Assembly: GCA_947454485.1 (NCBI GenBank)
Contig: CANGJJ010000006.1
Coordinates: 62,001 to 126,000 of the forward strand
Reading direction: 5' to 3'
Origin: Beijerinckiaceae bacterium
Lineage (GTDB): Bacteria > Pseudomonadota > Alphaproteobacteria > Rhizobiales > Beijerinckiaceae
DNA length: 64,000 nt
The position numbers and the translations under genes are program-made. Numbering within the stretch: the stretch's first letter is position 1; each line of letters begins with the position of its first letter. This document shows, piece after piece, positions 12,712 through 62,792 of this stretch. A model generated the notes under the pieces. It was not told the DNA's origin. It ran no database searches and worked only from the letters and a program-made list of their open reading frames with translations.

Positions 12712-12888
12712 CCTTCTCCCTGTGGGAGAAGGTGGCCGCGGAGCGGACGGATGAGGGGATCGGATATTCGTTGTGAGAGGCGCCATCCACCCTCCCCTTG
12801 AGGGGGAAGGTAGAGCGTTCTCAATTCTGCAACGCCCGATCCCCTCAGTCAGCATGCGCTGACAGCTCCTCCCACTGGGAAGAGCGGG
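12712..12888 (-). repeat. Intergenic bipartite palindromic repeat, copy B (inverted)
   Basis: Read on the minus strand this has the same order as copies A and C. The left module (about 12835-12888) includes the CAGTGGGAGGAGCTGTCAGC arm and the GTCAGCGCATGCTGAC hairpin. The right module (about 12712-12763) ends in the CCTTCTCCC...GGGAGAAGG hairpin. It lies between the convergent ycjF and msrQ genes. The middle (about 12764-12834) is unlike the middles of copies A and C. Confidence 0.85.
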
Positions 12889-43125: not shown

Positions 43126-43311
43126 TTCGCGCCTCCCCTGATTTGCACCCAAGTCTGGACACAGGGCGGCGCAAGTCAAGTCCACGCAAAAATGTGATCG
43201 AAGCGCCTCCAATGGCGTCACTTTGCCTTTGCTTCATGCGCTGTGCATGACAAACTTGCTTGTCGGCGCACCGCAGCAATCACAACATGTGGGCGTCTCT
43301 TGGAGGATCCT

Positions 43312-44332: not shown

Positions 44333-44360
44333 AAGGGCCGGATCACTCCGGCCCTTCTTT
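44333..44360. terminator. Bidirectional terminator between converging operons
   Basis: AAGGGCCGGA (44333-44342) pairs over 10 bp with TCCGGCCCTT (44347-44356) around a 4-base loop. It is flanked by A-rich bases on the left and CTTT on the right. It ends the rightward receptor gene and the long leftward operon, whose last stop codon overlaps it at 44359. Confidence 0.88.
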
Positions 44361-46647
44361 ATGCCTTGCGCTTGGCGGCTTGCACCAAATCCCAAATCCT
44401 GTTGGGCGACAGCGGCAGAATATTTGGCGCAACACCAAAACTCTTCAGCGCTGAGCTCACTGCATTGGCGACGACACCGCCGATGGGAATGATGCCGCCC
44501 TCGCCCGCACCCTTCGCACCAATCGGATGATTGGGGGTTGGATAATTATCGGTCGAGATGCAGTGAATATGCGGATAGTCGGTAGCAAGCGGCAGCAGAT
44601 AATCGGCCAGCGATCCAACAAGCAAAGTGCCCTGATCATCATAGGCAAGCTCTTCTGAGAAGACGCTACCAAAGCCCTGCACCGCCGCACCCATCACCTG
44701 ACCATGCAAGGTCAGCGGATTAATGATACGGCCCACATCGTCAACGACCAGATATTCAAGCACCTGCACATGACCCGTGTCAGCATCAACCGCGACATGA
44801 ACCGCGCCCGCGCCATAAGTATAGGTCGGCGTCCAGCTCGTATATTTGGCCTCAGTGACAATCTTGGCAGAGGCGACCTCCGCAAGTGGCACAGAGCGCC
44901 CATCCGCATGACGCGCCACGCCTTCAGCAATGGTGAGTGACGAGGGATCGACATTGAGACGCTTGGCCGCCTCTTCGCGGAAGCGGTCCAACATTTTCTC
45001 AGCCGCCATCATGATCGCGCTGCCACCCATGACGGTCGCACGCGAGCCATAAGAGCCCCAACCTTCCTTCAACAGATCAGTCGAACCGTGATAGATGCGC
45101 AAGCGATCCATCGGCAGCTCAAGCGCATCCGCAGTGATCTGCAACATCACCGTCTCGACGCCCTGCCCAATCGAAGATGAACCGATATACAAAGTCACAC
45201 TGCCATCGGCCTCCAATTCGAGCTTGCAAGCCTCGGAGGGGCCCGATGCACCACCTTCAATGAAGCTGGCAATGGCGATGCCGTGATAGCGACCATCAAC
45301 CTGCTGACCATCCAGCTTGGCTTTCTCGTCCCAGTGAAACTCTTTCAGGCAGCGGTCGAATGTCTCGCGATAATCACCGCTGTCGCAATTGGTCTCCGCG
45401 CGGCCATCGCTCGGCAGAACAGTGGCGAGCGGATAAGGCATCTCGGTATTGGTAAGGAGATTCTTGCGACGCAGCGCCACGCGATCCATCTGCAGAGCGT
45501 CAGCCGCCATCTCCATCAGCCGCTCCATGAAGAAGCAGCCTTCATAGCGCCCCGGCCCGCGATAAGTACCGGCGGGTGTTTTGTTGCTCACAAAGGCATG
45601 GGCTTTGAGATCAATATTGGGCACACGATAAGGCCCTGTCATGAACTGCGCCGCATTACGCACAGGCGTCATACCGTTGGGCCGCACATAAGCGCCGATA
45701 TTGACATAAAGATCGCCACGCATCCCCAAGATCGTGCCATCTTTTGACAGCGCCAATTCCACCTGCGCTTCACATTCACGCGAATGACCAATCGCGGTGA
45801 AATGTTCGCGGCGATCTTCAACCCATTTGATCGGTTTGTTGAACTTGCGCGCGGCAAAGGCGCACAAAAAGTCTTCGGGGTAGAATTCGCCGCGCGCACC
45901 AAAGCCGCCGCCCACATCAACCTCGATATAATCCACCGCCTCTTCGGGCAGCTTCATCATATCGGCCATGGTTTTGCGATTGAAGAAGGGGAGCTTGGCT
46001 GCACCTGACACGCGTAAGCGCCGGTTTTTCTCATCCCATTCGGCCAGAAGACCGCGCGTTTCCATCGGCGTTGCGGTTTGGCGCTGCGTATAGAAGCGAT
46101 CCTTGACCACAACATCGGCCTTGGCAAAGGCCTCATCCGCACTGCCCTTCTGGGCATTAAAGACAGAGGTCACATTGGACTTCTGCGCCTCGAACAAAAG
46201 CACCTTATCGGCAAAGCAAGTTTCGCGATCAAGCACCGCCGGGAGCTGCTCATACTCCACATCAATCAAACCAAGTGCATCTTCAGCGATCTCTTGGGAG
46301 TCTGCCAACACGACCGCAATCGGCTCACCAAAATAGCGCACTTTGCCGCGCCCGATAATGGGCTGCGCAAAAGGACCGATGGTCGGATTGGGACGACGGA
46401 AGGGGATGGTGGGAACATCCTCACCCATATCATCGCCCGTAAGCACAGCGCGCACGCCCTCAAGCGCCAGCGCAGCCGAAGCATCAATCTTCAAAATGCG
46501 GCCATGACCAACGGGGCTGCGCAAGAAAACCGCATGCCACATGCCTTCGCGCGACATGTCGCCGACATATTCGCCCGTGCCCGTCAAAAAGCGCTGATCT
46601 TCGATCCGCTCAACGGGGCTACCAATGTAAGTGTTGACGGTGCGCAT
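44359..46647 (-). CDS. Molybdenum hydroxylase large subunit (xanthine dehydrogenase family), set 1
   Basis: A 762-residue molybdopterin-binding catalytic subunit. It starts MRTVNTYIGSPVERIEDQRF. The Mo-site loop is AGTYRGPGRYEG and the catalytic Glu is in KGAGEGGIIP near the C terminus. The VAYRCSFR loop of CO dehydrogenase is absent, so it is a hydroxylase of an organic, probably heterocyclic, substrate. ATG 46647 begins right after the stop of the small subunit, with GGGGAGAG upstream. Last gene of the 12-gene operon. Confidence 0.92.
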   Translation of the reverse strand: MRTVNTYIGSPVERIEDQRFLTGTGEYVGDMSREGMWHAVFLRSPVGHGRILKIDASAALALEGVRAVLTGDDMGEDVPTIPFRRPNPTIGPFAQPIIGRGKVRYFGEPIAVVLADSQEIAEDALGLIDVEYEQLPAVLDRETCFADKVLLFEAQKSNVTSVFNAQKGSADEAFAKADVVVKDRFYTQRQTATPMETRGLLAEWDEKNRRLRVSGAAKLPFFNRKTMADMMKLPEEAVDYIEVDVGGGFGARGEFYPEDFLCAFAARKFNKPIKWVEDRREHFTAIGHSRECEAQVELALSKDGTILGMRGDLYVNIGAYVRPNGMTPVRNAAQFMTGPYRVPNIDLKAHAFVSNKTPAGTYRGPGRYEGCFFMERLMEMAADALQMDRVALRRKNLLTNTEMPYPLATVLPSDGRAETNCDSGDYRETFDRCLKEFHWDEKAKLDGQQVDGRYHGIAIASFIEGGASGPSEACKLELEADGSVTLYIGSSSIGQGVETVMLQITADALELPMDRLRIYHGSTDLLKEGWGSYGSRATVMGGSAIMMAAEKMLDRFREEAAKRLNVDPSSLTIAEGVARHADGRSVPLAEVASAKIVTEAKYTSWTPTYTYGAGAVHVAVDADTGHVQVLEYLVVDDVGRIINPLTLHGQVMGAAVQGFGSVFSEELAYDDQGTLLVGSLADYLLPLATDYPHIHCISTDNYPTPNHPIGAKGAGEGGIIPIGGVVANAVSSALKSFGVAPNILPLSPNRIWDLVQAAKRKA

Positions 46648-46648
46648 A

Positions 46649-47128
46649 TCAGCTCTCCCCCGCCTTGGCGCGATAGGCTTCGCGCGCTTCCATCGCAGCT
46701 TCGATGATCGGAATATAGCCTGTGCAACGACAGATATTGCCCGACAAAACATCGCGGATGCGCTCTTCGTCCGCATCAGGCTCCTGGCTGAGCAAAGCGT
46801 GAAGCGTGGTCAACATGCCCGGCGTGCAGAAACCACATTGCAAACCGTGATGCTTTTTGAAGGCGAGCTGCAAGGGAGAAAGCTCCTCGCCAGCTCCGAT
46901 CCCCTCAATGGTCGTGATCTTGGCGCCATCTGCTTGCACCGCGAGCATGAGGCAAGAGCGAACGGCCTCGCCATTCACAATCACTGTACATGCGCCGCAC
47001 ACACCGTGTTCACAACCCACATGCGTGCCGGTCATGCCCACATCATGGCGCAAGCAATCGGCGAGTGTTGTTCGCGCGGCTGGATCAACAGTGACCTTGC
47101 GGCCATTGACGTCAAAAGAAACTGTCAT
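46649..47128 (-). CDS. Molybdenum hydroxylase [2Fe-2S] subunit, set 1
   Basis: A 159-residue iron-sulfur subunit. The plant-type cluster motif is CEHGVCGAC plus a later Cys (VRSCLMLA). The second cluster uses CGFC (QCGFCTPGM) and CRC (NICRCTGY). It carries electrons from the Mo site to FAD. ATG 47128 with GAGG upstream is preferred to the in-frame GTG 47140. It lies between the FAD and large subunits, as is usual. Confidence 0.95.
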   Translation of the reverse strand: MTVSFDVNGRKVTVDPAARTTLADCLRHDVGMTGTHVGCEHGVCGACTVIVNGEAVRSCLMLAVQADGAKITTIEGIGAGEELSPLQLAFKKHHGLQCGFCTPGMLTTLHALLSQEPDADEERIRDVLSGNICRCTGYIPIIEAAMEAREAYRAKAGES

Positions 47129-47136
47129 GGCGGACC

Positions 47137-47994
47137 TCACTTGGCAGCCTGCGCAAGCGCGCGTTTGGTCAAAGTGCCCACAAGCGAGCGGCGATAATCT
47201 CTCGAGGCATGAATATCACTCTGCGGATTAACTTCTCCGCTCGCGACATCACCCACAGTTTCAAACAAGGCCTCACTCGGCTCTTGACCATTCAAGGCAG
47301 CCTCAGCGTTGGGCAGACGGCGCGGAATATCGGTCGCACCAAAGACGCCGATATGGGCCTGCGTGATCAGTCCCTGCTGATCAAGATCATAGAAAGCAAC
47401 GATCCCCGCGATGGCAAAGTCACCGCGCCGGCGCGCAAATTCTTGGAAGCCCCAGCGGCGGCGCTTGGGCCATACGGGCACGCGCACAGCTGTGATGATC
47501 TCATCATCAGCAAGGCAAGTCTCCAGAGCACCCGTGAATAAATCCGCCGCTTTGATCGCGCGCGCGCCTTTGCTCCCCACAACATCAATCACCGCATCGC
47601 AGGCCACAGCCAGTGCAGGGAACTCTGCAGCAGGATCAGCATGGGCCAAACTGCCGCCAACCGTGCCGCGATTGCGGATCTGATAATGCGCGACATGTTC
47701 CATCGCCGCAGCCAGAACGGGCACAACACGCGCAAGTTCGCGGCTCTCTTCGATCATGCGCCAGCGCACCATGGCGCCGATCTTCACTTCCTTGGCGAGC
47801 ACCTCAATGGAATCAAGCCCGGGCACATGGCGCAGGTCGACCAATGCAGATGGCTGCGCGAGACGAAATGCCATGACCGGCATCAAGCTCTGCCCGCCTG
47901 CAATAGGACGCGCCGACCCTTCGGAGGCCGCCAGCAGTGCCACAGCCTCAGCCAGTGAGGTGGGCGCGTGATAATCAAAAGTGGGCAGTTTCAT
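47137..47994 (-). CDS. Molybdenum hydroxylase FAD-binding subunit, set 1
   Basis: A 285-residue medium subunit of the CoxM/XdhB family. FAD motifs are ARPIAGGQSLMPVM (compare AGGQSL) and RNRGTVGGSLAHADPAAE. It passes electrons to an external acceptor. It begins 12 bases after the upstream decarboxylase-like gene and ends 8 bases before the [2Fe-2S] subunit start. Confidence 0.94.
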   Translation of the reverse strand: MKLPTFDYHAPTSLAEAVALLAASEGSARPIAGGQSLMPVMAFRLAQPSALVDLRHVPGLDSIEVLAKEVKIGAMVRWRMIEESRELARVVPVLAAAMEHVAHYQIRNRGTVGGSLAHADPAAEFPALAVACDAVIDVVGSKGARAIKAADLFTGALETCLADDEIITAVRVPVWPKRRRWGFQEFARRRGDFAIAGIVAFYDLDQQGLITQAHIGVFGATDIPRRLPNAEAALNGQEPSEALFETVGDVASGEVNPQSDIHASRDYRRSLVGTLTKRALAQAAK

Positions 47995-48006
47995 GCCACG
48001 AGCTCC

Positions 48007-48993
48007 TCAGATGCGGAAAACTTTGCCGCGCTTGTGGCCCTGCCCGACAGGCAGAAACAATTCATCAAGCGTCAGACGGCGACTGGTCAGGCCCTGCTCG
48101 TGCGAGAAGCCCGCCAGCATATCAAGCTGCTTGGCATTATTGGGCGTGAGGCCATATTCCCATGGATCAGGCCCCAAGATCTCTTCCTGTTCTTCCCAAG
48201 CCTCGCGATACCAAGCAAGCGGCGCAACGCGCGGATTTTCCATGCGCTGCATACCGATCTCTTTGGCCCGCTCAAATGCATGGAACAGATTGACAGGCAC
48301 CCAGGGATATTTCTCGACGATCTCATGCTTGATGCCAAGCACATGCATGATCGGGAAGATCTGCGTGCGCTTATAGAAGGCGATCTCTTCGGCTTTGTAA
48401 TTGGGAAACAGGCGGCCAACCCGCGGATCTTTATTGACGAGCGGCGCAATTAGATCGGGATGGATGAGCGCATCAATCTCACCCTCTGCCAGCATGGTCT
48501 CAATCGACTTGTCATCGGGGATGCGCTGCAGATTGAGGCCCGGAGGCGGCGTGAACTCAACAGCCTCGGCAAGCTCTGTGTACCAATCAATTGATTTGAA
48601 CGGCACGCCATATTCATGGTCGAGCAAACCACGCAACCACAACAAAGCAGTCGATTGATATTGCTTGAGACCGACCTTGCGACCAATCAGATCCTTCGGG
48701 CTCTTGATGCCCTTAGATGTGTTGATGAAGATAAAGCCATGGCGAAAGCGGCGATGCAAAAAGACAGGCAGCGCATCAAAACCAAAGCCCTTGTCTTTGG
48801 AGGCGATATAAGACGAGCCGGAAACTTCACCCACATCAAAATCGCGGTTACGCAAGAAGCGATAATGGCGCGTGGTGGAATCCATCGCCGTGAGGACATT
48901 GAGCTCAATGCCATCTGGCTTCACCGTGCCGTCTTTCAGCGGGCGAATGATCTCATAGTCACCGCATGCCAATGTAAGCTCTAACTTGGCCAT
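48007..48993 (-). CDS. 4,5-dihydroxyphthalate decarboxylase-like protein (periplasmic-binding-protein fold), copy 1
   Basis: A 328-residue protein without a signal peptide that resembles Pht5-type 4,5-dihydroxyphthalate decarboxylases and their ABC-receptor-like relatives. Landmarks are LACGDYEIIRPLKDG near the start, GRKVGLKQYQSTALLWLRGL and EKYPWVPVNLFHAFERAKE. If enzymatic it would remove a carboxyl group from an aromatic diacid; it could also be a cytoplasmic binding protein. It lies directly upstream of Mo hydroxylase set 1. A relative lies at 61608. Confidence 0.78.
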   Translation of the reverse strand: MAKLELTLACGDYEIIRPLKDGTVKPDGIELNVLTAMDSTTRHYRFLRNRDFDVGEVSGSSYIASKDKGFGFDALPVFLHRRFRHGFIFINTSKGIKSPKDLIGRKVGLKQYQSTALLWLRGLLDHEYGVPFKSIDWYTELAEAVEFTPPPGLNLQRIPDDKSIETMLAEGEIDALIHPDLIAPLVNKDPRVGRLFPNYKAEEIAFYKRTQIFPIMHVLGIKHEIVEKYPWVPVNLFHAFERAKEIGMQRMENPRVAPLAWYREAWEEQEEILGPDPWEYGLTPNNAKQLDMLAGFSHEQGLTSRRLTLDELFLPVGQGHKRGKVFRI

Positions 48994-49015
48994 AAGCCCC
49001 TCCCCTTGCCGTTCT

Positions 49016-49918
49016 TTAGCGTGGCTTTGCGGTGGATGATTTTACCGATTGCATCAGTGAGCGAAGATAGGCACTGGCCGCTTCACCCTTGAGGGCCGTG
49101 CCCCACATTTCTTTCACAGCCTTCTCATGCAGCGTGAGCGCCTCTTGCGCCGATGTAATCATTGCGACGCCCACACGCACATTGGGATTTTCGCCCAATC
49201 GGAAAGGGCTCAGCGTCATCACCTTGCGGTCGGGCTGACGGAAGATTTGAAAGCCTGTCTGCGGCAAGGCATCACGCACGACACCAATCTGCACACCAAT
49301 CGGCCCGCTGGAGATTAACTCAGCGAAATATTCAATCTCGGCTTGCGCCAATGCGCGGCGCTGATCCTGCTGATCTTGCGGCAGTTGCGCTTTTCCCACA
49401 AAGCCATTGCGCAGCAAACGTTCGATCTCGATACCAGAGATGAGATTGACAACACCGGGCTGACGACGCCGGAAGGTTGCTTTGCGCTCAACCAGAATGT
49501 CGAGGATGGTGTTGATATCCGCCATGACGCGTTCACGGTCGGGAATATCAGCTGCCACACTCTCGATCAGCAACTGTTTCAGCAATTCATCAAAGCGCTC
49601 TGAGGCGAGCAGGTAAGACAAGGGGCCAGCAAGAACGACGATATGTTCGGCCTGCTCTTCCAATTGCCGCAAGCGCTCGAAATAAGCCACAGCCGAGGAG
49701 ATATATTCGATGCCAACACCCAAAAGTGTCGGGATCGACACATCCAGCAATTCAGCGAGCTTTTCGAGCGTCTCGATCTTGGCCAATTCACCGCGTTCGA
49801 AACGATAAAGAGCGGTGCGCGAAATACCGATACGGCGGGCGATTTCATCCGCGCTCATACCAGAGGCGAGGCGAAACGCCTTCAGCCGTTGCCCGATCTC
49901 ATCGTAGCGAAAACTCAT
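49016..49918 (-). CDS. XRE-family regulator with a large unassigned C-terminal domain
   Basis: A 300-residue protein. The N-terminal helix-turn-helix (about 8-65) reads IGQRLKAFRLASGMSADEIA, then RRIGISRTALYRFERGELAK. The remaining roughly 230 residues are soluble and match no domain I recognise; they probably sense a metabolite. The start ATG 49918 overlaps the stop of the quinone reductase gene, so it is translated within the catabolic operon and likely controls it. Feedback by a pathway intermediate is a reasonable inference. Confidence 0.88.
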   Translation of the reverse strand: MSFRYDEIGQRLKAFRLASGMSADEIARRIGISRTALYRFERGELAKIETLEKLAELLDVSIPTLLGVGIEYISSAVAYFERLRQLEEQAEHIVVLAGPLSYLLASERFDELLKQLLIESVAADIPDRERVMADINTILDILVERKATFRRRQPGVVNLISGIEIERLLRNGFVGKAQLPQDQQDQRRALAQAEIEYFAELISSGPIGVQIGVVRDALPQTGFQIFRQPDRKVMTLSPFRLGENPNVRVGVAMITSAQEALTLHEKAVKEMWGTALKGEAASAYLRSLMQSVKSSTAKPR

Positions 49919-50913
49919 GCTGCACTCCACGGCAGCAAAATCATACGCCCTTGCGCTGTGCGTTCTTCAACAGCGCGTAGCGCCTGCGCAAAATTGTCGA
50001 GTGGCAACTCAGAAGCTGCGAGCGGCTTCAGCTTGCCCTGCACATAAAAATCAAAGACCTCGCGATAGCATTGCGCAACCTGTTCTGGGCGTCGCTTGCG
50101 ATAATCGCTCACCTGCAGACCTGAGACTTCGATATTTTTAACGAGCAGATAATTCACTTTGACGGAGGGAATATGCCCAGCCGCAAAGCCGATAACCACA
50201 AGACGGCCACACCAGGCCAAAGCTCGGATGGCGGCGTCAAACACATCACCGCCCAAGGGATCGAGAATGATGTCGACGCCCTTGCCATCGGTCTGCGCAT
50301 GAACCTGCGCACGCAGGCTCTCGCGCAAATCAGGAGCTGACAGATCAACGACACCATCAGCACCAGCAGCCAGCGCCTGCGCCTCTTTGGCACGCGAAGA
50401 AATGCCTGCCAAAACGCGCGCACCCATGGCTTTGGCCAATTGCACACTGGCTTGCCCCACAGCGCCCGTTGCGCCCAACACAAGAACAGTTTCGCCCGGC
50501 TGCAAACGCGCACGCTCGCGCAATGCAAACCATGATGTGTCGAAGGCAAGCGACATGGCGCCAGCCTGCGTATAAGACAGTCCGTCGGGCAGCGCATAGC
50601 AGCTCTTGGCAGGCGCGAGCGCATATTGTGCATAGCCGCCCTGCTCAGCCATGGCGAGAATACGCGTCCCAACTTTGAGATTGGTAACACCCTCACCAAG
50701 GGCTGTAACAACACCCACAGGGCCCTTGCCCGGCGTGAAAGGCAGCTTGGGCAAAAATTGATATTTGCCGCTGATGACCAACAAATCGACGAAGTTAACA
50801 GGTGCAGCATGCACCTCCATCAATACTTCACCGGGGCCGGGCTGTGGCACAGCCACATCCTCGACACGCGCATCGTCGTAAGGACCAAAAGAACGAAGAA
50901 CAACGGCACGCAT
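49915..50913 (-). CDS. Zinc-free medium-chain dehydrogenase, quinone oxidoreductase type
   Basis: A 332-residue MDR-family NADPH oxidoreductase. The NADP motif is VLVLGATGAVGQASVQLAKA. The catalytic-zinc Cys/His ligands of alcohol dehydrogenases are absent. It likely reduces an enoyl or quinone-like intermediate; enoyl-CoA or enone reduction would fit beside an acyl-CoA synthetase. ATG 50913 has GAGG 8 bases upstream and lies 10 bases past the synthetase stop. Confidence 0.88.
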   Translation of the reverse strand: MRAVVLRSFGPYDDARVEDVAVPQPGPGEVLMEVHAAPVNFVDLLVISGKYQFLPKLPFTPGKGPVGVVTALGEGVTNLKVGTRILAMAEQGGYAQYALAPAKSCYALPDGLSYTQAGAMSLAFDTSWFALRERARLQPGETVLVLGATGAVGQASVQLAKAMGARVLAGISSRAKEAQALAAGADGVVDLSAPDLRESLRAQVHAQTDGKGVDIILDPLGGDVFDAAIRALAWCGRLVVIGFAAGHIPSVKVNYLLVKNIEVSGLQVSDYRKRRPEQVAQCYREVFDFYVQGKLKPLAASELPLDNFAQALRAVEERTAQGRMILLPWSAA

Positions 50914-50923
50914 CAGTTCAGCC

Positions 50924-52570
50924 TCACGCAACAGCTTTGGGTTTGAAGCGCACAGGCACAGGTGCAAAACGACCCTCGCTCACCCCGCTCACCAGATCGC
51001 GCTTCAAAATCTTGCCGCTGGGTGTCAGTGGCATTTTGTCGAGCACAAGAACGAATTCAGGCATATCAAAGCGTGACAGACCTGCATCATCGAGATGGCT
51101 CAGCAAATCATCCGGCGTCATCGCCTCAGCCTTGCGCAGCACGACGGCCAAGCAAACCTTCTCGCCAAGGCGATCATCTGCCACAGGCAGAGCTGCTGCC
51201 TTGTCGACAAGCTCATGCCGCATAGCGAGCGCTTCGATCCGTGCGGGATAGATATTATGACCGCCACGAATGATGACGTCTTTCTTGCGACCCGTGATGC
51301 GCAGATAGCCTTTCTCATCCATCCAACCCAGATCGCCGGTCATGAACCAGCCACTGCGATTGAAAGATGTCTCGGTCGCTTCCTGATCGTCGAAATAGCC
51401 CAGCATCAAACTCGCGCCGCGCCCGCCAATCTGCCCAGCCTCGCCCGCGGGCAATTCGCGATCAGGATCATCCTGCGCAAAAATCTTCACCTCATAGCCA
51501 GAGCAAGCTCGACCTGAGGTTTCACAGATCGTCTGCGCATCATCGCTCGGCACGGTGTAGTGATGCGAGCCAGCCTCGGTCATGCCATAGCCACTCTGCG
51601 GCACAACACCGTGATCGAGCAAACCAGCTGCAACACTCGGCGGCACTGATGCGCCCGAGATGCGGAAGCCCTTCACCTGCCCCAGCTGTTTCAAACCGCG
51701 TTGGCGGATCTCGCTCAATAGGTCAATCGCATGGGTTGGAACGCCGATGATGAAAGTCGTGCCGGCATCAATGATGCGATCAACAAGGCTCTTGCCGCGT
51801 GGCAGATCATGGACAATGAATTCACCGCCACGAATGAGCGTCATACCACAAGCGCCATAGCCCAGATTATGGCTGAGCGGGCTCATCGAATAGACAACAC
51901 TATCTTCCAGCAGCGACCAGTCAGCTGACAGCGCACGCGCATTGGCAAGCAAAGTATTGTCGCTATGCATGACGCCTTTGGGGATGCCCGTCGTGCCGGA
52001 TGTGAAGGCGAGATAGACAATCGTATTGGGATCACTGCGGACCTCAGGCGGGGCGCCGTTCAGATCTTTGAACGAGAGCTTCGCCTCATCGCTCGAAAGC
52101 GGGTCAAGGCCATAAACCGCGCGCAGCGAGGGGATCGCACCAAGCTCATTGAAGATATCGGCCTTGTGCGCATCAGCCCCATAACCGCGCTCAGTGATCA
52201 AAGCGCTCGCGCGCATACGGATCATAAGATCGCGAATTTCAGCGACCGTGTGATCGCGATGGAGCGAGGGGCAGCAGACATAGCCATTGCGCGAACAGGC
52301 CAGCGATGCCACAGCCGTCTCAAGACGGCTCGGCAACCAGACAGCCACACGCTCACCAGCCTTGACGCCTTGACGATGTAGATCACCTGCGAGCGCCTCC
52401 ACAGCACCAATCAAAGCGCTGTAGGTAATCGCCCGCTTTTGATCGCGCAAAGCAACCTTGCCGGGTGTCTTGCGCGCATGGGCGGCCACGAGCTGGAAGA
52501 TCGTATCATCCTGCCAGTGACCTTCCGCATAAAAGCGACGCATGTCCTGCGCATTCAGCAAGGTGAGCAT
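50924..52570 (-). CDS. Acyl-CoA synthetase (AMP-forming)
   Basis: A 548-residue ANL-superfamily ligase. The P-loop-like motif is LAFTSGTTGIPKGVMHSDN, the A5 motif SGYGMTEAG, the A7/A8 region FMTGDLGWMDEKGYLRITGR and the A10 Lys in TPSGKILKRDL. It converts a carboxylic acid to its CoA thioester using ATP. It resembles cyclohexanecarboxylate and medium-chain acyl-CoA ligases. ATG 52570 is used; the longer frame overlaps the upstream amidase. The ribosome site is weak. Confidence 0.92.
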   Translation of the reverse strand: MLTLLNAQDMRRFYAEGHWQDDTIFQLVAAHARKTPGKVALRDQKRAITYSALIGAVEALAGDLHRQGVKAGERVAVWLPSRLETAVASLACSRNGYVCCPSLHRDHTVAEIRDLMIRMRASALITERGYGADAHKADIFNELGAIPSLRAVYGLDPLSSDEAKLSFKDLNGAPPEVRSDPNTIVYLAFTSGTTGIPKGVMHSDNTLLANARALSADWSLLEDSVVYSMSPLSHNLGYGACGMTLIRGGEFIVHDLPRGKSLVDRIIDAGTTFIIGVPTHAIDLLSEIRQRGLKQLGQVKGFRISGASVPPSVAAGLLDHGVVPQSGYGMTEAGSHHYTVPSDDAQTICETSGRACSGYEVKIFAQDDPDRELPAGEAGQIGGRGASLMLGYFDDQEATETSFNRSGWFMTGDLGWMDEKGYLRITGRKKDVIIRGGHNIYPARIEALAMRHELVDKAAALPVADDRLGEKVCLAVVLRKAEAMTPDDLLSHLDDAGLSRFDMPEFVLVLDKMPLTPSGKILKRDLVSGVSEGRFAPVPVRFKPKAVA

Positions 52571-52586
52571 AGTTGACGCCACAGGC

Positions 52587-53900
52587 TTACTCCGCAGATT
52601 TCTTGATTTTAGGAATGGGCAGGCTGATCCCTGCGCGATCGCGCAGCCAGATGGAGGCTTGTAGCAAGCGCTGATCCTGCCAGCGCGGGGCAATCACCTG
52701 CACAGCGACAGGCATTTTGTTGCGACCGCGCGCCGCAGGCAGCGCAAGAGTTGGGACATGCAGGCAGGTCCAGAAGCCCTGGAACGCCGGCTCGCCTGTG
52801 AAAGCAAGACCCACAGGCGCTTCACCATGAACACAAGGGGCGAGCAAAATATCGTAATCGGCGAAGAGCTCATCAAGCTTCACGCGCGCAAATTCTGCAA
52901 AGCGCAGCTCATCATGATAGGCCGCCTCTGATGTCTTGAGACCAAGCTCAATGGACTTCGTCATCTGCGGGCTCAAAAGCCCGCGGTGATGCGCCCATTC
53001 CCATGCAAGCGAGCGTGCGCGCTCGACATTGTTGAGCACTTCGCGCGTCTCACTGATGCGCGCGAATTTGGCGGGCAGTTTGAACATGCGCACCGAAGCG
53101 CCAGCCGCCTTGGCTTTCGCAGCAGCTTCGTCCAAAGCCTTCTTCGTCTCGGGCTTTGCCTTCTCATACATTGGCGTCAGGCAAATACCGATCCGCGGCG
53201 CGCGCTTGGACGCACGCGCATCAATCTGCTGATTGGTGAGACCCGTTGAGAAAAGCGCGCAATCTTCAACCGTGCGCCCGAACAGGCCAATCGTGTCGAG
53301 CGACTCGGCTGCAAATTTCAACCCTTCGCGATTATAGGTGTTATAGGTCGGCTTATAGCCGACAATGCCGCAATAAGAGGCGGGGCGCAGAACAGAGCCA
53401 CCGGTCTGCGTGCCAAAAGCCAGCGGCACCATGAAGTCAGCAACAGCCGCAGCCGAGCCGCTCGACGAGCCACCGGGCGTGCGCGTCACATCATGCGGAT
53501 TGGTGGTAGCGCCCGGCGCAATGCCCGCAAGCTCGCAGGTCACCGTCTTGCCAAGAACAACCGCACCCGCTGCGCGCGCAAGAGCAACGCAAGCTGCATC
53601 ATTGCGGCTTTGATAGCCGTCATAAATTGGGGAGCCCATCTGCGTCGGCAGATCATGCGTGTTCAAAACATCCTTCACGCCAACCGGAACGCCATGCAAG
53701 GGACCCTTGGGAGGCGTCGCATCACAAGCGCGCGCAGCAGCCAGGGCCTTGTCAAAATCCGTCGCTGACCACGCATGCACAACATCTTCGCGCGCCTCGA
53801 TGCGCTCGATACAGGCGCGCACCAATTGCTCGGATGTAATCTCGCCAGCCTTGATCTTCTGTGCCGCCTCAGTGGCGGAAAGTTCGTTGAGTAATGTCAT
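52587..53900 (-). CDS. Amidase (amidase-signature family)
   Basis: A 437-residue hydrolase that splits C-N amide bonds. The Ser-Ser-Lys triad is visible: Lys in VPVGVKDVLN, the cis-Ser and nucleophile Ser in TPGGSSSGSAAAVAD and TQTGGSVLRP. No signal peptide, so it is cytoplasmic. It overlaps the upstream PyrC-like gene by 4 bases, so an amide produced by that cyclic amidohydrolase is an attractive substrate; this is inference. Confidence 0.93.
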   Translation of the reverse strand: MTLLNELSATEAAQKIKAGEITSEQLVRACIERIEAREDVVHAWSATDFDKALAAARACDATPPKGPLHGVPVGVKDVLNTHDLPTQMGSPIYDGYQSRNDAACVALARAAGAVVLGKTVTCELAGIAPGATTNPHDVTRTPGGSSSGSAAAVADFMVPLAFGTQTGGSVLRPASYCGIVGYKPTYNTYNREGLKFAAESLDTIGLFGRTVEDCALFSTGLTNQQIDARASKRAPRIGICLTPMYEKAKPETKKALDEAAAKAKAAGASVRMFKLPAKFARISETREVLNNVERARSLAWEWAHHRGLLSPQMTKSIELGLKTSEAAYHDELRFAEFARVKLDELFADYDILLAPCVHGEAPVGLAFTGEPAFQGFWTCLHVPTLALPAARGRNKMPVAVQVIAPRWQDQRLLQASIWLRDRAGISLPIPKIKKSAE

Positions 53901-54943
53901 GATTGAATAACCTTCCAGGGAATGACTTCACCGCCGCGATAAATCAATGCACGCTCTTCCGGCCCCGCGACCTTAATCTCATCGGGGGCAACCCAATCCC
54001 GCTTCTCAAGTGTGATCGTCTCGCTATTGGGCTCCATGCCATAATGGCGCGGACCATTAAGCGAAGCGAAGGCTTCCAAATTCTGCAGCTTGCCCTGCTC
54101 CTCAAAAACCTGCGCATAGGTCTCAATCGCGACCGGCGCATTGAAGAGCCCGGCAGCGCCCACAACGCCGAGCTTCTTGGCAACAGCATGCGGCGCAGAA
54201 TCAGTTCCAAGGAAGAAACAGGCATCACCCGATGTCGCTGCATCAATCAGGGCGAGACGATCATGCTCCGTCTTGATCACAGGCATGCAGTAGAAATAGG
54301 GGCGATTGCCCCAGCCGAGCCAATCTGTGCGGTTGTGGCGCAAATGATAGGGCGTGATCGAAGCGCCAACCTGCGGCGCAGACGAGCGGATATATTCAAC
54401 GCCAATCTTGGAGGACAGATGTTCAAGAATGATCTTGAGACCGGGAAACTTCTTCGTCATCGGAATGAGGCGGCGCTCAATGAAGACGGCCTCGCGGTCG
54501 AACACATCCACCGCCGGATCGACCTCTTCCCCATGGATCAAAAAGCGCATGCCAATTTTTTCCATGCGCGCCAGCACGGGCTCAATCTTGCGATAATCAG
54601 TCACGCCCGCCGCTGAATTGGTCGTGGCATTGGCAGGATAAAGCTTCACGCCGGTGAAGATGCCCTCTTTGAAACCGCGCTCGACATCATCTGGATCCGT
54701 GTCATCGGTCAGATAGCAGGTCATCAGCGGCTTAAAGGTCGTATCCTTCGGCAAGACCGCCATAGCGCGCTTGCGATAAGCGTCTGCATCAGCAGCCGTG
54801 CGCACAGGCGGCACGAGATTGGGCATCAGAATCGCGCGGCCAAATTTCTGCGCCGTGAACGGCAAAGATGCTTTCAGCATCTCATTGTCGCGCACATGCA
54901 AATGCCAATCATCGGGCTTGCGAATGGTGATGCGCGTTGTCAT
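53897..54943 (-). CDS. pyrC: Dihydroorotase PyrC-type (class II) cyclic amidohydrolase
   Basis: A 348-residue protein equal in length to E. coli PyrC. The binuclear zinc site is complete: HxH in DDWHLHVRDN (H14, H16), the carboxylated Lys in TGVKLYPA, His in LIHGEEVD and ILEHLSSK, and Asp in LGTDSAPHAV. PyrC interconverts carbamoyl-aspartate and dihydroorotate. Its place between a Mo hydroxylase and an amidase, with ATGA overlaps on both sides, suggests it may open a heterocyclic ring in catabolism instead of, or as well as, serving pyrimidine synthesis. Confidence 0.9.
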   Translation of the reverse strand: MTTRITIRKPDDWHLHVRDNEMLKASLPFTAQKFGRAILMPNLVPPVRTAADADAYRKRAMAVLPKDTTFKPLMTCYLTDDTDPDDVERGFKEGIFTGVKLYPANATTNSAAGVTDYRKIEPVLARMEKIGMRFLIHGEEVDPAVDVFDREAVFIERRLIPMTKKFPGLKIILEHLSSKIGVEYIRSSAPQVGASITPYHLRHNRTDWLGWGNRPYFYCMPVIKTEHDRLALIDAATSGDACFFLGTDSAPHAVAKKLGVVGAAGLFNAPVAIETYAQVFEEQGKLQNLEAFASLNGPRHYGMEPNSETITLEKRDWVAPDEIKVAGPEERALIYRGGEVIPWKVIQS

Positions 54944-57273
54944 GGGGCAGCAGCCTTCTCGATAAGGGAGACGAGATCGGGGGGCGTGATCGGCACGCGG
55001 GTGATTTTGACATTGAAGGGCGCGAGCGCATCATCCACTGCAGCGGCCACAGCCGCCGTCATCGGGATAACGCCCGATTCACCGACACCTTTGATGCCAA
55101 GCTCGTTGAGCGGTGTGGGCGACGTCAGATGCACAATGTCGACTTTCATCGGCATTTCTGTCGCACTCACCAGCAAATATTCTGCAAGGGTCGTGGTGAC
55201 AGGCTGGGCATTTTCGTCAAAGCCCATCCATTCATACAGCGCATTGCCGATACCATGGGCCATGCCGCCGATGATCTGCCCCTCGACAATTTGCGGATTC
55301 AAGACATTGCCGCAATCATGCGCGAAAGTGACATGGGTCAGTTGCACAAGCCCCGTCTCAGGATCGACCTCAACCTCAACAACCGCTGTGCCATTGGCAT
55401 AGGTCATATCATTGATGATGACGCGCTCGGTTGCCTCCAAACCCGGATCAAGACCACCGGGCACATAATAGCCAGGCAGACCGGCCAGAGCGCGCGCGAT
55501 CTCACCCAAACCAACCTTGCGCTCGTCATTGCCTTTGAGGCGCACATGGCGACCTTCAACTTCGAGCGCTTGCTCGCCCACATCAAGCATATGTGCAGCA
55601 ACGGTCAGAGCTTTGGCGCGCACTTTCTTGGCAGCTGCATGAGCTGAGGCGCCTGCCATAACGGCCTGACGGCTATTGAAGCCACCCATGCCATAATCAA
55701 TGGCGGCTGTGTCGCCCGTCACGACAGTAATATTGCTCATGTCGCAACCAAGCTGTTCAGCGACGACCTGCGCGAGCATGGTCTTGGTGCTCTGGCCCAT
55801 AGCAGCAGCACCGCTGGCCACATGAATGCGACCATTCTCGCCGATGCGTACACTGACAGGTTCAAAAGGTCCGCGACCTGTACCTTCAACATAATTGGCA
55901 AGGCCAATCCCAAGATAGCGCCCCTCTTTGCGCGCAGCAGCCTGACGCGCGCGGAAGCCCGCCCAATCGGCTTTCTCAAGAGCCGCCGCTTGAGTGGCAG
56001 GATAATCACCACTGTCGAGCACGACCTGCATACCGCCGCGCGTCTTGAGCGGCGTCGTATAGGGGATCAGCTCTGGGGGCACGAGATTTCGACGACGCAC
56101 TTCATCGGTCGTCAGCTTCAATTCGCGCGCCACGCGATCCATCAAACGTTCCATCGCAAAGACAGCCTGCGGCTGGCCTGCACCACGAATGGGAGTCACG
56201 GGCACTTTGTTGGTGACGGCGAGTTTGATGTCGAGGAAGAAGCACGGAACAATATAGGGCAGCGTGATCGCCGCAGCAGATCCATAAGGCACATTCACGC
56301 CGCGCGCCGTATAGGCACCGTGATCGTGAACGAGCAGACCACGCAGACCAAGAATCTTGCCATCATTGTCGACCGCGATCTGCATATCCCAAAGCTGGTC
56401 GCGCTCTTGTGTCGTAGAGACGAAATGTTCGCGGCGATCTTCGATCCATTTGACCGGAGCGCGCAATTCACGCGCTGCCAAAGCAAGGATCACCTCTTCG
56501 GGATAGAAAACGAGCTTGGGGCCAAAGCCACCACCGACATCGGGCGTCACAACGCGCAGCTTGTCTTCATCAAGACCCAGCACATCGCAAATCACACGCT
56601 TGCAGGCATGGGGCGTCTGCGTCGAGCTCCAGAGCGTGATGATGTCTTCGAGTCGGTCGTGGCGCGCCACAACGCCGCGACATTCCATCGAATGGGCAAC
56701 ACCGCGATGCTGCCACAGCTCTTCATGGAACACATGCGGGGCGCTGGCAAAGACCGTCTCATGGTCGCCATAGCCCATGGTGAATTCGGCGACCAGATTA
56801 TGCGGCTGGCTGGAATGAGCGCGCGGCGCATCAGCCTCCAGCGCGGCCTTGCAATCACTCACAGCCGGCAGCGGCTCATAATCGACCATGACAAGCGCAG
56901 CGGCATCTTCGGCGATATAGCGGCTATCGGCGATCACCACCGCAATGGCCTCGCCCACATGCACGACTTCTTGATCGCTCAGGGTGGGACGATGCAGCTC
57001 TTGCCGGAAGGCCGGGCTAGGCAGCGCGACTTTCAAGAGAGGATCGCTCAGATGATGGGCGATATCTTCCATACGCCAGATCGCGCGCACGCCCGGCACA
57101 TCGAGCGCAGCGGAAATATCAACCGTGCGGATCAGCGCATGGGCTTCAGCACTGCGCACAAAAGCAGCATGCAACAGGCCGGGGAAGCTGATGTCGTCGA
57201 CAAAGCAGGCCTGACCGCGCAGCAAGGCACGATCTTCGACACGCTCAACACTGGTGCCAACAATCCTGTTCAT
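54940..57273 (-). CDS. Molybdenum hydroxylase large subunit (xanthine dehydrogenase family), set 2
   Basis: A 777-residue molybdopterin subunit. It starts [20 protein letters not shown]. The Mo-site loop is TPIRGAGQPQAVFAMERL, different from set 1, and the catalytic Glu is in KGVGESGVIP. The CO dehydrogenase Cys loop is absent. Differences from set 1 in the substrate loop suggest a second, distinct hydroxylation. It overlaps the [2Fe-2S] subunit at its start and pyrC at its end by 4 bases each. Confidence 0.92.
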   Translation of the reverse strand: MNRIVGTSVERVEDRALLRGQACFVDDISFPGLLHAAFVRSAEAHALIRTVDISAALDVPGVRAIWRMEDIAHHLSDPLLKVALPSPAFRQELHRPTLSDQEVVHVGEAIAVVIADSRYIAEDAAALVMVDYEPLPAVSDCKAALEADAPRAHSSQPHNLVAEFTMGYGDHETVFASAPHVFHEELWQHRGVAHSMECRGVVARHDRLEDIITLWSSTQTPHACKRVICDVLGLDEDKLRVVTPDVGGGFGPKLVFYPEEVILALAARELRAPVKWIEDRREHFVSTTQERDQLWDMQIAVDNDGKILGLRGLLVHDHGAYTARGVNVPYGSAAAITLPYIVPCFFLDIKLAVTNKVPVTPIRGAGQPQAVFAMERLMDRVARELKLTTDEVRRRNLVPPELIPYTTPLKTRGGMQVVLDSGDYPATQAAALEKADWAGFRARQAAARKEGRYLGIGLANYVEGTGRGPFEPVSVRIGENGRIHVASGAAAMGQSTKTMLAQVVAEQLGCDMSNITVVTGDTAAIDYGMGGFNSRQAVMAGASAHAAAKKVRAKALTVAAHMLDVGEQALEVEGRHVRLKGNDERKVGLGEIARALAGLPGYYVPGGLDPGLEATERVIINDMTYANGTAVVEVEVDPETGLVQLTHVTFAHDCGNVLNPQIVEGQIIGGMAHGIGNALYEWMGFDENAQPVTTTLAEYLLVSATEMPMKVDIVHLTSPTPLNELGIKGVGESGVIPMTAAVAAAVDDALAPFNVKITRVPITPPDLVSLIEKAAAP

Positions 57274-57767
57274 GCGCGGCTCCCCGCGTCTTTGATGCGC
57301 TGGGCGGCATCAAGCGCTGCCGCCACAATGCCCTCATAACCGGTGCAGCGGCACAGATTGCCAGAGATCGCGATGCGCACATCAGAATCGGTGGGCGATG
57401 GATTATCGCGCAGCAATTCGGTCAGCGTGGTCAACATGCCAGGCGTACAGAAGCCGCATTGCAATCCGTGATGATCACGCAAAGCCGCCTGCAAATGGCT
57501 CAACTCGCCCTTGGCAGATTCCAGCCCTTCGATTGTCTCGATCTCATGGCCATTGGCCTGCACCGCCAGCATCAGGCAGGAGCGCGCGGAATGACCATCA
57601 AACAAAACCGTGCAAGCGCCGCATACACCATGTTCGCAGCCCACATGTGTCCCGGTGAGGCCAAATTCATGGCGCAAACAATCAGACAAAGTCATGCGCA
57701 CAGGCACGCTCGCTCTATGCAGCTTGCCATTCACCGTCACTTCAATCTCGCGCATCGGCTCGCTCAT
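57270..57767 (-). CDS. Molybdenum hydroxylase [2Fe-2S] subunit, set 2
   Basis: A 165-residue subunit with two cluster motifs: CEHGVCGAC with a later Cys (ARSCLMLA), and CGFC ([10 protein letters not shown]) with CRC ([10 protein letters not shown]). It has the same layout as the set 1 subunit but clearly different sequence, so the two sets are not a recent duplication. It has 4-base overlaps with both neighbours. Confidence 0.95.
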
Positions 57768-58639
57768 GACTTGCTCCCCGCGCTGGCCCGCTCACAGGCG
57801 CGCACAAGTGCACGCCGCACCATCACGCCGGCCAAATGCTGGCGATAGGAGGCTGGCGCATGCACATCTCCCAAAGCATCCAACTCTTTGCAGGCAGCGG
57901 TTGCTGCGCGGAAGAGTTCGGGCGAGGGCTCGCGCCCCATCAAGGCCGCCTCAATCGCCTCCATGCGCATGGGCGTGGCGCAAACACCGCCAATGGCAAC
58001 CGCCACGCGGTCAATTGCGCCCTGCGCATCGAGCGTCAGAACCACAGCCGCCGAGGCTATGGCAAAATCACCATGACGGCGGGCGAATTCTTCGAACGCA
58101 TAACCATGACCCTTGGGCCAGAGCGGCAGAGCAATGCGCGTGACAAGCTCATCCGCGCCAATGGCGGGTGTCATATAGCCAAGCGGAAAGTCGGCAAACA
58201 TCAGGCCGCGCGGGCCGGAAGGGCCCACGACCTCCACTTGCGCCTCGAGCGCAAGGCACAGGGTCGGCAATTCAGCCGCAGGATCGAGATGGCACAAAGA
58301 GCCGCCAATCGTGCCGCGGTTACGGGTCTGGCGATGGCCGACCTGCAACAGGGCCTCTGCCAGAATGGGGCAATGGGTGGCGACAAGGTCGCTGAACTCC
58401 AGCTCGCGCTGGCGCGTCATGGCACCAATGACCAGCGCCTGATCATGCAGCTCGACGCCCGCAAGGCCGGGGATATTGTTCAGATCGATCACATGGTCGG
58501 GCAGAACGAAGCGCATATTGAGCATGGGCATGAGCGATTGCCCGCCCGCCAGCAGCTTGGCATTTTCCAAAGAGCCCAGCAGCGCCACGGCATCTTCGAC
58601 GCTCTTGGGATCGTGATAGGCGAAGGAAGGAGGCTTCAT
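57764..58639 (-). CDS. Molybdenum hydroxylase FAD-binding subunit, set 2
   Basis: A 291-residue FAD subunit. Motifs are KLLAGGQSLMPMLNMRF and TRNRGTIGGSLCHLDPAAE. It is the first gene of the leftward operon ending at 44359, so the operon promoter should lie in 58640-58914. ATG 58639 (MKPPSFAYHDPKSV) matches the family N terminus. Confidence 0.94.
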   Translation of the reverse strand: MKPPSFAYHDPKSVEDAVALLGSLENAKLLAGGQSLMPMLNMRFVLPDHVIDLNNIPGLAGVELHDQALVIGAMTRQRELEFSDLVATHCPILAEALLQVGHRQTRNRGTIGGSLCHLDPAAELPTLCLALEAQVEVVGPSGPRGLMFADFPLGYMTPAIGADELVTRIALPLWPKGHGYAFEEFARRHGDFAIASAAVVLTLDAQGAIDRVAVAIGGVCATPMRMEAIEAALMGREPSPELFRAATAACKELDALGDVHAPASYRQHLAGVMVRRALVRACERASAGSKS

Positions 58640-58914
58640 CGCAAAAGCGGCTCCGGACCGAGTGAACCATTTTTTGTACTAAAGCTGCTTTTCGGTCTGC
58701 CCGCAAGAGCGCCACAGGGCCCCAACGCCTTTGTGCACATTTTGGCTGGCAGCTCGCAAAAGAGCGGAATAGCGGGCTTTCCTGCCCCTGTTTGTTTCTT
58801 TTGACAAAGACCGAACAGGCGTCGCCGCAGCATTGACCGGGCCTGCGGAACGTGATCCAATTTTGGCACAAACCAATGGTATCGGCTGTCAGGGCCAAGT
58901 TTCGGGAGACTTTC
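58640..58914. promoter_or_regulatory. Divergent promoter region of the 12-gene operon and the UbiD-like gene
   Basis: 275 non-coding bases between divergent start codons. The region must hold the promoters for the leftward operon and the rightward decarboxylase gene, and probably the site of the operon's XRE regulator. I see no strong inverted repeat and cannot assign -35/-10 boxes. CGGGAG at 58903-58908 is the ribosome site of the rightward gene. Confidence 0.5.
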
Positions 58915-62585: not shown

Positions 62586-62792
62586 ATTGTCCACCAATGT
62601 CATCTTTGCCGCGATGGTAGGGGATCGAGCCCAAACGCGCTAGTGCGCGCCTCCCTCCAATGGCCGATGGGGTGGACCGCCTGCTCGAAAGCGATTAATC
62701 ATCTCCAAGACAGCTGCAGCCAACTTTGGCGCGCAAGCACTGCGGCGCCGCCCTTGAGCGGTTCGCCCCAAAAGAACATTCGGGTGGGAACA

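What the first reader, a model, noticed from the sequence alone, without database searches (positions are those of the whole stretch)
44359..58639. Twelve-gene catabolic operon with two different molybdenum hydroxylases, a PyrC-like ring opener, amidase and CoA ligase
Twelve same-strand genes run without a break. In order they are FAD, [2Fe-2S] and Mo subunits (set 2), PyrC-like, amidase, acyl-CoA synthetase, MDR quinone reductase, XRE regulator, Pht5-like protein, then FAD, [2Fe-2S] and Mo subunits (set 1). Several pairs overlap by 4 bases, and one bidirectional terminator (44333) ends the run. Known families suggest a route: hydroxylate an N-heterocycle, open a cyclic amide, remove ammonia, activate with CoA, reduce, decarboxylate. 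I know no described operon with this combination. The order of steps and the substrate are inference.
Basis: partly seen in the sequence, partly recalled or inferred. Interest (0 to 1): 0.78.

Follow-up and report, generated by a model that had tools for sequence, protein, structure and literature searches.

The report
Pyridine-carboxylate breakdown operon with recruited dihydroorotase
A bacterial gene cluster that looks built to break down a nitrogen-containing ring acid, by hydroxylating it twice, reducing it and then cutting the ring with an enzyme borrowed from DNA-base synthesis, so that the carbon can enter the citric acid cycle.

Summary
Twelve minus-strand genes at 58639→44359 have gaps of at most 22 bp and six 4-bp overlaps. 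Eleven keep their order in a Rhizobiales genome, L061. The conserved unit is larger than reported: it includes a divergent UbiD decarboxylase (58852-60369) and a TctC-like protein (43243-44328). The PyrC-like protein belongs to a separate clade (14 rows, support 100/100) that keeps 11 recalled catalytic residues but differs at 12 columns. Two relatives carry tricarballylate dehydrogenase genes inside the operon. Elsewhere a PuuE-like hydrolase appears where PyrC is missing. Best reading: two Mo hydroxylases make citrazinate ("3-deaza-orotate"); it is CoA-activated and reduced to a cyclic imide, opened by PyrC, deamidated to tricarballylate and oxidised to cis-aconitate. That resembles the isonicotinate route of Mycobacterium INA1. 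UbiD suggests a pyridine dicarboxylate as starting compound. No substrate was tested, and orotate-type chemistry remains the main rival.

The parts
57764..58639 (-). FAD subunit, Mo hydroxylase set A (first transcribed)
   Evidence: PF00941 160 bits, PF03450; 57-64% relatives in L061, L063, L064
57270..57767 (-). [2Fe-2S] subunit, set A
   Evidence: PF01799/PF00111
54940..57273 (-). Mo subunit, set A; relatives 59-75% in related clusters
   Evidence: PF02738/PF20256; closest solved 7dqx 473 bits and quinoline 2-oxidoreductase 452 bits
53897..54943 (-). PyrC-type amidohydrolase, proposed opener of a dihydroorotate-like cyclic imide
   Evidence: TIGR00856 400 bits, cut-off 293; operon-only clade 100/100; 11 catalytic positions kept in 28 of 28 rows, 12 separating columns
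52587..53900 (-). amidase-signature enzyme, proposed half-amidase; K76, S145, S169 and R172 kept
   Evidence: PF01425 253 bits; closest solved malonamidase E2, 267 bits; alignment of 3
50924..52570 (-). acyl-CoA ligase (start revised)
   Evidence: PF00501 209 bits; 61% to pDP3 ligase
49915..50913 (-). MDR (PIG3-like) reductase (start revised), proposed reductase of the CoA thioester
   Evidence: TIGR02824 222 bits, below its cut-off of 297; in the same locus as the ligase in 9 of 9 ligase loci looked at, adjacent or one thioesterase apart in 8 of 9
49016..49918 (-). XRE regulator with a conserved C-terminal part; relatives near orotate-type catabolic genes
   Evidence: PF01381; 58% to pDP3, 39-48% in orotate-type clusters
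48007..48993 (-). Pht5-like protein (4,5-dihydroxyphthalate decarboxylase relative)
   Evidence: 9jp7, 196 bits; 79% in L061, not found in the L062-L064 stretches
47137..47994 (-). FAD subunit, Mo hydroxylase set B
   Evidence: PF00941 161 bits
46649..47140 (-). [2Fe-2S] subunit, set B
   Evidence: glyceraldehyde DH gamma model 195 bits, below cut-off
44359..46647 (-). Mo subunit, set B (start revised); 34% identical to set A
   Evidence: 13 NCBIfam Mo-subunit models, none over cut-off; 7dqx 504 bits
44331..44358 (.). hairpin between convergent stop codons, probable bidirectional terminator
   Evidence: not listed by the consensus scan
58852..60369 (+). UbiD-type decarboxylase, divergent from the operon; 81-86% in L061-L064
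   Evidence: PF01977 198 bits
43243..44328 (+). TctC-like substrate-binding protein; 71-74% relatives in L062-L064
   Evidence: PF03401 29 bits, cut-off 27

Best explanation
The cluster encodes aerobic breakdown of a pyridine acid with a carboxyl group at ring position 4: isonicotinate-like, and because of UbiD probably a pyridine dicarboxylate. Proposed steps, all inferred from families and context. (1) The TctC-type protein helps uptake. (2) UbiD and perhaps the Pht5-like protein remove the extra carboxyl. (3) The two Mo hydroxylases put oxygen on both carbons flanking N, giving citrazinate (2,6-dihydroxypyridine-4-carboxylate, a 3-deaza analogue of orotate). (4) The ligase makes the CoA thioester and MDR reduces the ring; some relatives add a thioesterase, others have PyrD/PyrK. 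This yields the cyclic imide 2,6-dioxopiperidine-4-carboxylate, an analogue of dihydroorotate with one ring N replaced by carbon. (5) The PyrC-type enzyme hydrolyses the imide as dihydroorotase does, giving the half-amide of tricarballylate. (6) The amidase releases ammonia, giving tricarballylate. (7) TcuAB, on another contig in this genome but inside the operon in two relatives, oxidises it to cis-aconitate. (8) The XRE regulator probably senses an orotate-like ring acid.
For: TcuA (681 and 685 bits, cut-off 369) and TcuB (483 and 453 bits, cut-off 247) occur in L063 and L062, same-strand inside the operon in L063/L064. Plasmid pDP3 of Alicycliphilus has ligase 61%, thioesterase 55%, MDR 58%, amidase 49%, XRE 58%, two Mo sets and annotated tcuA/tcuB, with a PuuE-allantoinase-like protein and no PyrC hit. 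L067 has UbiD 69%, Mo subunit 60% and directly after it a 61% relative of that PuuE-like protein, the place PyrC has elsewhere. Both Mo subunits are, among solved structures, closest to an enzyme that hydroxylates a hydroxypyridine (role from the listing of PMC8305194). The window genome has tcuAB on contig C19 and a separate class-I PyrC, 343 bits, so the operon PyrC is probably not needed for biosynthesis. PyrC clade and residues. XRE relatives: 6 of the 73 plasmid records found were opened; 5 sit near PyrD, a PyrK relative and a carbamoylase-type hydrolase, 1 is pDP3. A passage of PMC4548258 says isonicotinate in Mycobacterium INA1 is hydroxylated to a 2,6-dihydroxy product.
Against: No substrate, product or transcript was measured. 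The window operon itself has no tcuAB, thioesterase or PyrDK. Two relatives (L083, L092) have orotate phosphoribosyltransferase genes flanking PyrC, which favours orotate. L066 has both PyrDK and MDR, so they are not strict alternatives. L062 shows no PyrC in 16.5 kb although the neighbours are there, and L062-L064 show no Pht5-like gene. TcuB passes one of two TcuB models (461 and 463 of 524 on the other). The same ligase and MDR types (52%) occur with beta-oxidation genes in Cupriavidus, so they are not specific to heterocycles. L118 has the PyrC with other Mo enzymes and no amidase or UbiD in 18 kb. The roles of UbiD, Pht5-like and CoA steps are guesses. No shared operator motif was found.
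Confidence: 0.52

Rival explanations
1. Orotate/pyrimidine catabolism. The Mo enzymes and UbiD convert a pyrimidine acid to orotate, a reductase makes dihydroorotate, the PyrC-type enzyme opens it to N-carbamoylaspartate and the amidase acts as ureidosuccinase.
For: PyrC keeps 11 recalled catalytic residues. PyrK/PyrD sit near it in 7 of 15 loci. PyrE genes flank it in L083 and L092. XRE relatives sit near orotate-type genes. Some amidase-signature enzymes act on ureides (e.g. 6c62 biuret hydrolase, 111 bits).
Against: The orotate-type plasmid clusters use a carbamoylase-type Zn hydrolase; the Variovorax one gave no listed hit at E 1e-8 in the 64-kb window. The ligase, MDR, thioesterase and TcuAB have no use in that route. 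The two PyrD relatives found in this genome are 28% identical. The PyrC clade differs from ordinary dihydroorotases at 12 columns.
Confidence: 0.2
2. Pyridine degradation as in the best reading, but for a ring without a 4-carboxylate (for example 2,6-dihydroxypyridine or a nicotinate), giving glutarate-type products instead of tricarballylate.
For: Arthrobacter crystallopoietes has a similar Mo/PuuE-like/asparaginase/ligase/MDR cluster, with no tcuAB among the 17 features listed (that gene table is incomplete by design). The nearest model of the window's CoA-transferase is succinate-glutarate CoA-transferase, 513 bits but below cut-off 750.
Against: TcuAB in L062-L064 and pDP3. PyrC keeps R18, N42 and H252, which bind the carboxylate of dihydroorotate (conservation; role recalled).
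Confidence: 0.17
3. Oxidative uracil route: Mo enzyme makes barbiturate, PyrC replaces barbiturase, amidase is ureidomalonase, ligase makes malonyl-CoA.
For: The amidase is closest among solved structures to malonamidase E2.
Against: The ligase is far below the malonyl-CoA synthase cut-off (215 of 558). UbiD, MDR, Pht5-like and TcuAB are unexplained. Barbiturate has no carboxylate.
Confidence: 0.03
4. Two unrelated catabolic sets that happen to lie in one run, each Mo hydroxylase with its own substrate.
For: The Mo subunits are only 34% identical, and set B is missing or distant in several relatives.
Against: Relatives of both Mo subunits recur with the same partners in L061-L064 (62-75%); short gaps and overlaps.
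Confidence: 0.05

Closest known systems
Isonicotinate catabolism in Mycobacterium sp. INA1 (Kretzer, Frunzke & Andreesen 1993; not read, only its mention in passages of PMC4548258 was seen)
   Same: Hydroxylation to a 2,6-dihydroxy acid by Mo enzymes; a CoA-activated, reduced imide stage is recalled, not read
   Different: Found here as genes, with a PyrC-type imide opener, a UbiD and a Pht5-like protein; substrate not tested
Catabolic plasmid pDP3 of Alicycliphilus denitrificans DP3 (annotated record; no paper seen)
   Same: Ligase, MDR, amidase and XRE of the same families (49-61%), two Mo sets
   Different: Carries tcuAB, a thioesterase and a PuuE-like hydrolase; no PyrC, UbiD or Pht5-like hit in the 58.8 of 62.8 kb read
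Putative orotate-breakdown clusters on plasmids (Variovorax, Klebsiella, Nitratireductor, Roseicitreum, Agrobacterium)
   Same: XRE regulator of the same family; PyrC in two of the five (Variovorax and Klebsiella)
   Different: PyrK/PyrD and a carbamoylase-type Zn hydrolase instead of ligase, MDR and amidase; no UbiD or three-part Mo hydroxylase set found in the stretches read
Type II dihydroorotase PyrC (TIGR00856)
   Same: Scores over cut-off; recalled catalytic residues kept
   Different: Separate clade, 12 separating columns, catabolic neighbours, and the genome has two other dihydroorotases

Membership tests
Type II dihydroorotase (TIGR00856) | HMM score over curated cut-off | tested here: met
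   400.5 bits against 292.95
Type II dihydroorotase (TIGR00856) | metal ligands and carboxylate-binding residues (list recalled) | tested here: met
   11 positions, 28 of 28 rows identical
Type II dihydroorotase (TIGR00856) | groups with ordinary dihydroorotases | tested here: not met
   14 operon rows on one side of a 100/100 branch, 14 other rows on the other
Type II dihydroorotase (TIGR00856) | activity on dihydroorotate | not testable with these tools
   no assay
Amidase-signature family | Lys/cis-Ser/Ser triad | tested here: met
   K76, S145, S169 in 3 of 3; motif positions recalled
Xanthine-dehydrogenase-type Mo hydroxylase | three subunits with FAD, two [2Fe-2S] domains and Mo-binding domains | tested here: met
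   Pfam for set A complete and FAD of set B; [2Fe-2S] and Mo subunits of set B by NCBIfam models, below their equivalog cut-offs
Isonicotinate-type pathway (INA1) | two ring hydroxylations giving a 2,6-dihydroxy acid | tested here: inconclusive
   two Mo sets of the right family; substrate unknown
Isonicotinate-type pathway (INA1) | route to a tricarboxylic acid entering the citric acid cycle (recalled) | tested here: inconclusive
   TcuAB in the L062-L064 clusters and on pDP3, but on another contig in this genome
Orotate-catabolic cluster | carbamoylase-type Zn hydrolase | tested here: not met
   no listed hit of the Variovorax enzyme in the window at E 1e-8
Orotate-catabolic cluster | PyrK/PyrD reductase | tested here: not met
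   no hit in the window; the two PyrD relatives in this genome are 28% identical
Tricarballylate dehydrogenase TcuA | equivalog models over cut-off (relatives' genes) | tested here: met
   L062, L063 pass both TcuA models; TcuA-like of L061, L081 pass one of the two
Pht5-type decarboxylase | decarboxylase activity | not testable with these tools
   sequence match to 9jp7 only

The most novel reading that the evidence does not exclude
A catabolic branch assembled from pyrimidine-synthesis parts. A PyrC clade (with PyrD/PyrK in some members) and an orotate-type regulator were taken over to handle 3-deaza analogues of orotate and dihydroorotate, that is citrazinate and 2,6-dioxopiperidine-4-carboxylate from natural pyridine dicarboxylates. 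The parts are interchangeable: PyrDK or ligase-thioesterase-MDR for ring reduction, and PyrC or a PuuE-like imidase for ring opening.
Probability: 0.42. Interest if true: 0.75.

Novelty: new variant of a known kind. Interest (0 to 1): 0.6.

Why it matters
If true, it supplies genes for a pyridine-4-carboxylate route that I know mainly from enzymology. It would show a core biosynthetic enzyme, dihydroorotase, turned into a ring-opening catabolic enzyme. It would also let 'dihydroorotase' annotations in such clusters be corrected: the operon PyrC passes the TIGR00856 equivalog cut-off, so automatic annotation would then give it the wrong name. The substrate question becomes a small set of direct growth and enzyme tests.

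Tried and rejected
Amidase-based synteny in the window's own family led nowhere: 20 regions fetched of 29 relatives' loci listed, none with PyrC or the cluster. Four of the 12 named loci (L069-L072, Methylobacterium) do not carry the cluster. A shared operator in the divergent region was sought in 8 loci and not found: the best 12-mers reached 4 of 8 loci within two mismatches, as did 2 of 10 shuffles. The promoter scan gave 6 sites against 7.2 expected, so nothing was made of it; the terminator scan gave 22 against 16.6. No Rfam match in the window at gathering scores. The AlphaFold model of XRE was poor (mean pLDDT 62.6) and was not searched further. The idea that UbiD is a phthaloyl-CoA decarboxylase was considered after a 46% hit on an Aromatoleum plasmid, but no call told that gene's role; not used. 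Barbiturate and plain orotate readings are kept as rivals. Ten paper searches listed no paper on genes for isonicotinate or orotate breakdown; most listings were cut short (searches were complete, with 3 and 2 papers) and the library lacks most subscription journals, so absence from print is not claimed. A first test of L061:11324-12841 used the wrong frame and was redone as 11313-12806. In the PyrC alignment one of 11 ordinary rows (L108) was dropped because extraction failed, and L107 was not used; L118 was found later and is not in the tree. The organism of the window was not identified.
Full report
WHAT IS THERE. The window is G000:C6:62001-126000 of an unnamed 3.29-Mb genome. After moving four starts downstream, six junctions overlap by 4 bp and no gap exceeds 22 bp. 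A strong hairpin lies between the last stop codon and that of the convergent TctC-like gene, though the consensus terminator scan did not list it.

THE UNIT IS LARGER AND CONSERVED. A scan of named genome contigs with the amidase gave 12 loci, 8 of them at 52-65%; the other four, from Methylobacterium, lack the cluster. In L061 (uncultured Rhizobiales) 11 of the 12 genes recur in the same order, with a TcuA-like gene and a reversed TctC-like gene inserted, and UbiD divergent at 86%. L063 and L064 (Beijerinckiaceae) carry the set A Mo subunit, PyrC, amidase, ligase, thioesterase, MDR, TcuA, TcuB, CoxG and the TctC relative (71%) in one direction, with UbiD and XRE on the other strand. L062 is similar but shows no PyrC in 16.5 kb. 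No Pht5-like gene was seen in L062-L064. UbiD (81-86% in L061-L064) and TctC (71-74% in L062-L064) therefore belong with the operon; Pht5-like and XRE are less constant.

HOW RARE. PyrC relatives at E<=1e-135 were found in 4 of 385 genomes of the class, the window's own included; 1 of 398 in a phylum draw, the window's own; 8 of 11 genomes of one family, f114; and 2 of 397 genomes of the order of L063's genome, that genome included.

TABLE OF CONTEXTS. I looked at 15 loci with the operon-type PyrC: window, L061, L063, L064, L065, L066, L081, L082, L083, L089, L090, L091, L092, L093, L118. Many are short contigs, so absences are weak. Mo hydroxylase genes: 12 of 15. UbiD: 9 of 15. XRE: 9 of 15. 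Amidase: 9 of 15, counting L115, the other part of L091's contig. PyrK/PyrD: 7 of 15 (a 27% PyrD match in L081 not counted). Ligase: 4 of 15. MDR: 5 of 15, one of them (L066) with PyrK/PyrD too. TcuA or TcuA-like: 5 of 15. PyrE: 2 of 15.

THE PyrC CLADE. Fourteen operon-type proteins fall on one side of a branch with support 100/100; ten ordinary and four plasmid type II dihydroorotases fall on the other. Twelve columns separate the operon rows (13 or 14 of 14 alike) from the commonest residue of the ordinary rows; at 8 of them (140, 177, 178, 199, 216, 220, 228, 300) the operon residue is in none of the 14 other rows. They include V to E three residues after a metal-binding His, TT to SS just after another, H to Y at 216 and L to M at 220. 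Eleven catalytic positions (roles recalled) are identical in 28 of 28. The window genome also holds a second TIGR00856 protein and a class-I PyrC over cut-off; in f114, 6 of 8 genomes searched have a class-I PyrC over cut-off. So the operon protein keeps the catalytic residues, is probably not needed for biosynthesis, and may have a different but dihydroorotate-like substrate.

THE END PRODUCT. The FAD protein and its neighbour in L062 and L063 pass TcuA and TcuB equivalog cut-offs (TcuA both models; TcuB one of two): these enzymes turn tricarballylate into cis-aconitate (from the model names and general knowledge). The window genome has tcuAB at C19:4381-6841. If opening and deamidation of the ring give tricarballylate, the ring was 2,6-dioxopiperidine-4-carboxylate. 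That is dihydroorotate with one ring N replaced by carbon; its aromatic form is citrazinate. This is inference from chemistry.

INTERCHANGEABLE PARTS. Plasmid pDP3 of Alicycliphilus denitrificans has CoxG, ligase, thioesterase, MDR, a polysaccharide-deacetylase-family protein, XdhC, amidase, XRE, two Mo sets, tcuA and tcuB, and carries much of this twice. The deacetylase-family protein is, among solved structures, closest to PuuE allantoinase (94 bits), a family that also holds cyclic imidases (recalled). In L067 a 61% relative of it directly follows the set A Mo subunit, the place PyrC has elsewhere; UbiD (69%) is there too, on the same strand. Arthrobacter crystallopoietes pLDW-10 has a related set: Mo subunits, two such hydrolase-like genes (36% and 29%), asparaginase, CoxG-like, ligase 54%, MDR 53%. 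Replacement of PyrC by an unrelated hydrolase in a similar setting is the best evidence that PyrC acts as a ring-opening imidase. Against specificity: the same ligase and MDR types sit among beta-oxidation genes in Cupriavidus.

THE REGULATOR. The XRE search found 73 plasmid records. Of six such regions opened, one is pDP3 (58%, the closest) and five are orotate-type (39-48%): Variovorax, Nitratireductor, Agrobacterium, Roseicitreum and Klebsiella. All five carry PyrD and a carbamoylase-type hydrolase; four have a gene annotated as dihydroorotate dehydrogenase electron transfer subunit and the fifth, Klebsiella, a 40% PyrK relative. An orotate-like effector is therefore likely; citrazinate would fit. 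Two loci with PyrE beside the operon-type PyrC (L083, L092) instead suggest that orotate itself may matter in that branch.

UbiD AND START OF THE ROUTE. No UbiD was found on pDP3, which could then serve a monocarboxylate such as isonicotinate; the window type has UbiD, so a dicarboxylate keeping its 4-carboxyl (2,4- or 3,4-pyridinedicarboxylate) is my guess. L063 has a class II aldolase-family protein, with relatives in L062 and L064, whose best model is 3,4-dihydroxyphthalate decarboxylase, far below cut-off (81 of 200).

LITERATURE. I saw search listings, passages of PMC7356986 (a dioxygenase of the amidohydrolase superfamily, not PyrC) and passages of PMC4548258. The details of the INA1 route beyond the 2,6-dihydroxy product are recalled.

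VERDICT. Observation confirmed; interpretation partly right; step order revised; substrate unproven. New variant of a known kind.

Noticed in passing
G000 (own genome): 17 Mo-hydroxylase large-subunit genes (18 matches, two of them pieces of one gene) in 3.29 Mb.
   Followed up: no
G000:C6:26532-27548 (outside the window) and G000:C8:49507-50730: A second type II dihydroorotase and a class-I dihydroorotase in the same genome.
   Followed up: partly
L119/L124, plasmid pDP3: Much of the catabolic cluster (not tcuAB) is present twice on the 62.8-kb plasmid, with the same protein accessions for most genes in both copies.
   Followed up: no
L120, L121, L122, L123, L095: Putative orotate-breakdown operons on plasmids of Nitratireductor, Agrobacterium, Roseicitreum, Klebsiella and Variovorax; 53 of 73 plasmid records with an XRE relative are Klebsiella.
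   Followed up: partly
window 61608-62603: A second protein with weak Phosphonate-bd/NMT1 matches like the Pht5-like one, beside a class III CoA-transferase at 60422-61573.
   Followed up: partly
L061:11313-12806, L067:15243-16712, L081:7515-8999, L082:11186-12664: A TcuA-like flavoprotein family (68-70% between L081 and L061 or L067); the two tested (L061, L081) pass only one of two TcuA models. It could be a ring reductase or a dehydrogenase.
   Followed up: partly
L065 and L066: A TPR-repeat protein conserved (65%) between amidase and PyrK.
   Followed up: no
window 15921-20498: A 1525-aa ORF outside the finding.
   Followed up: no
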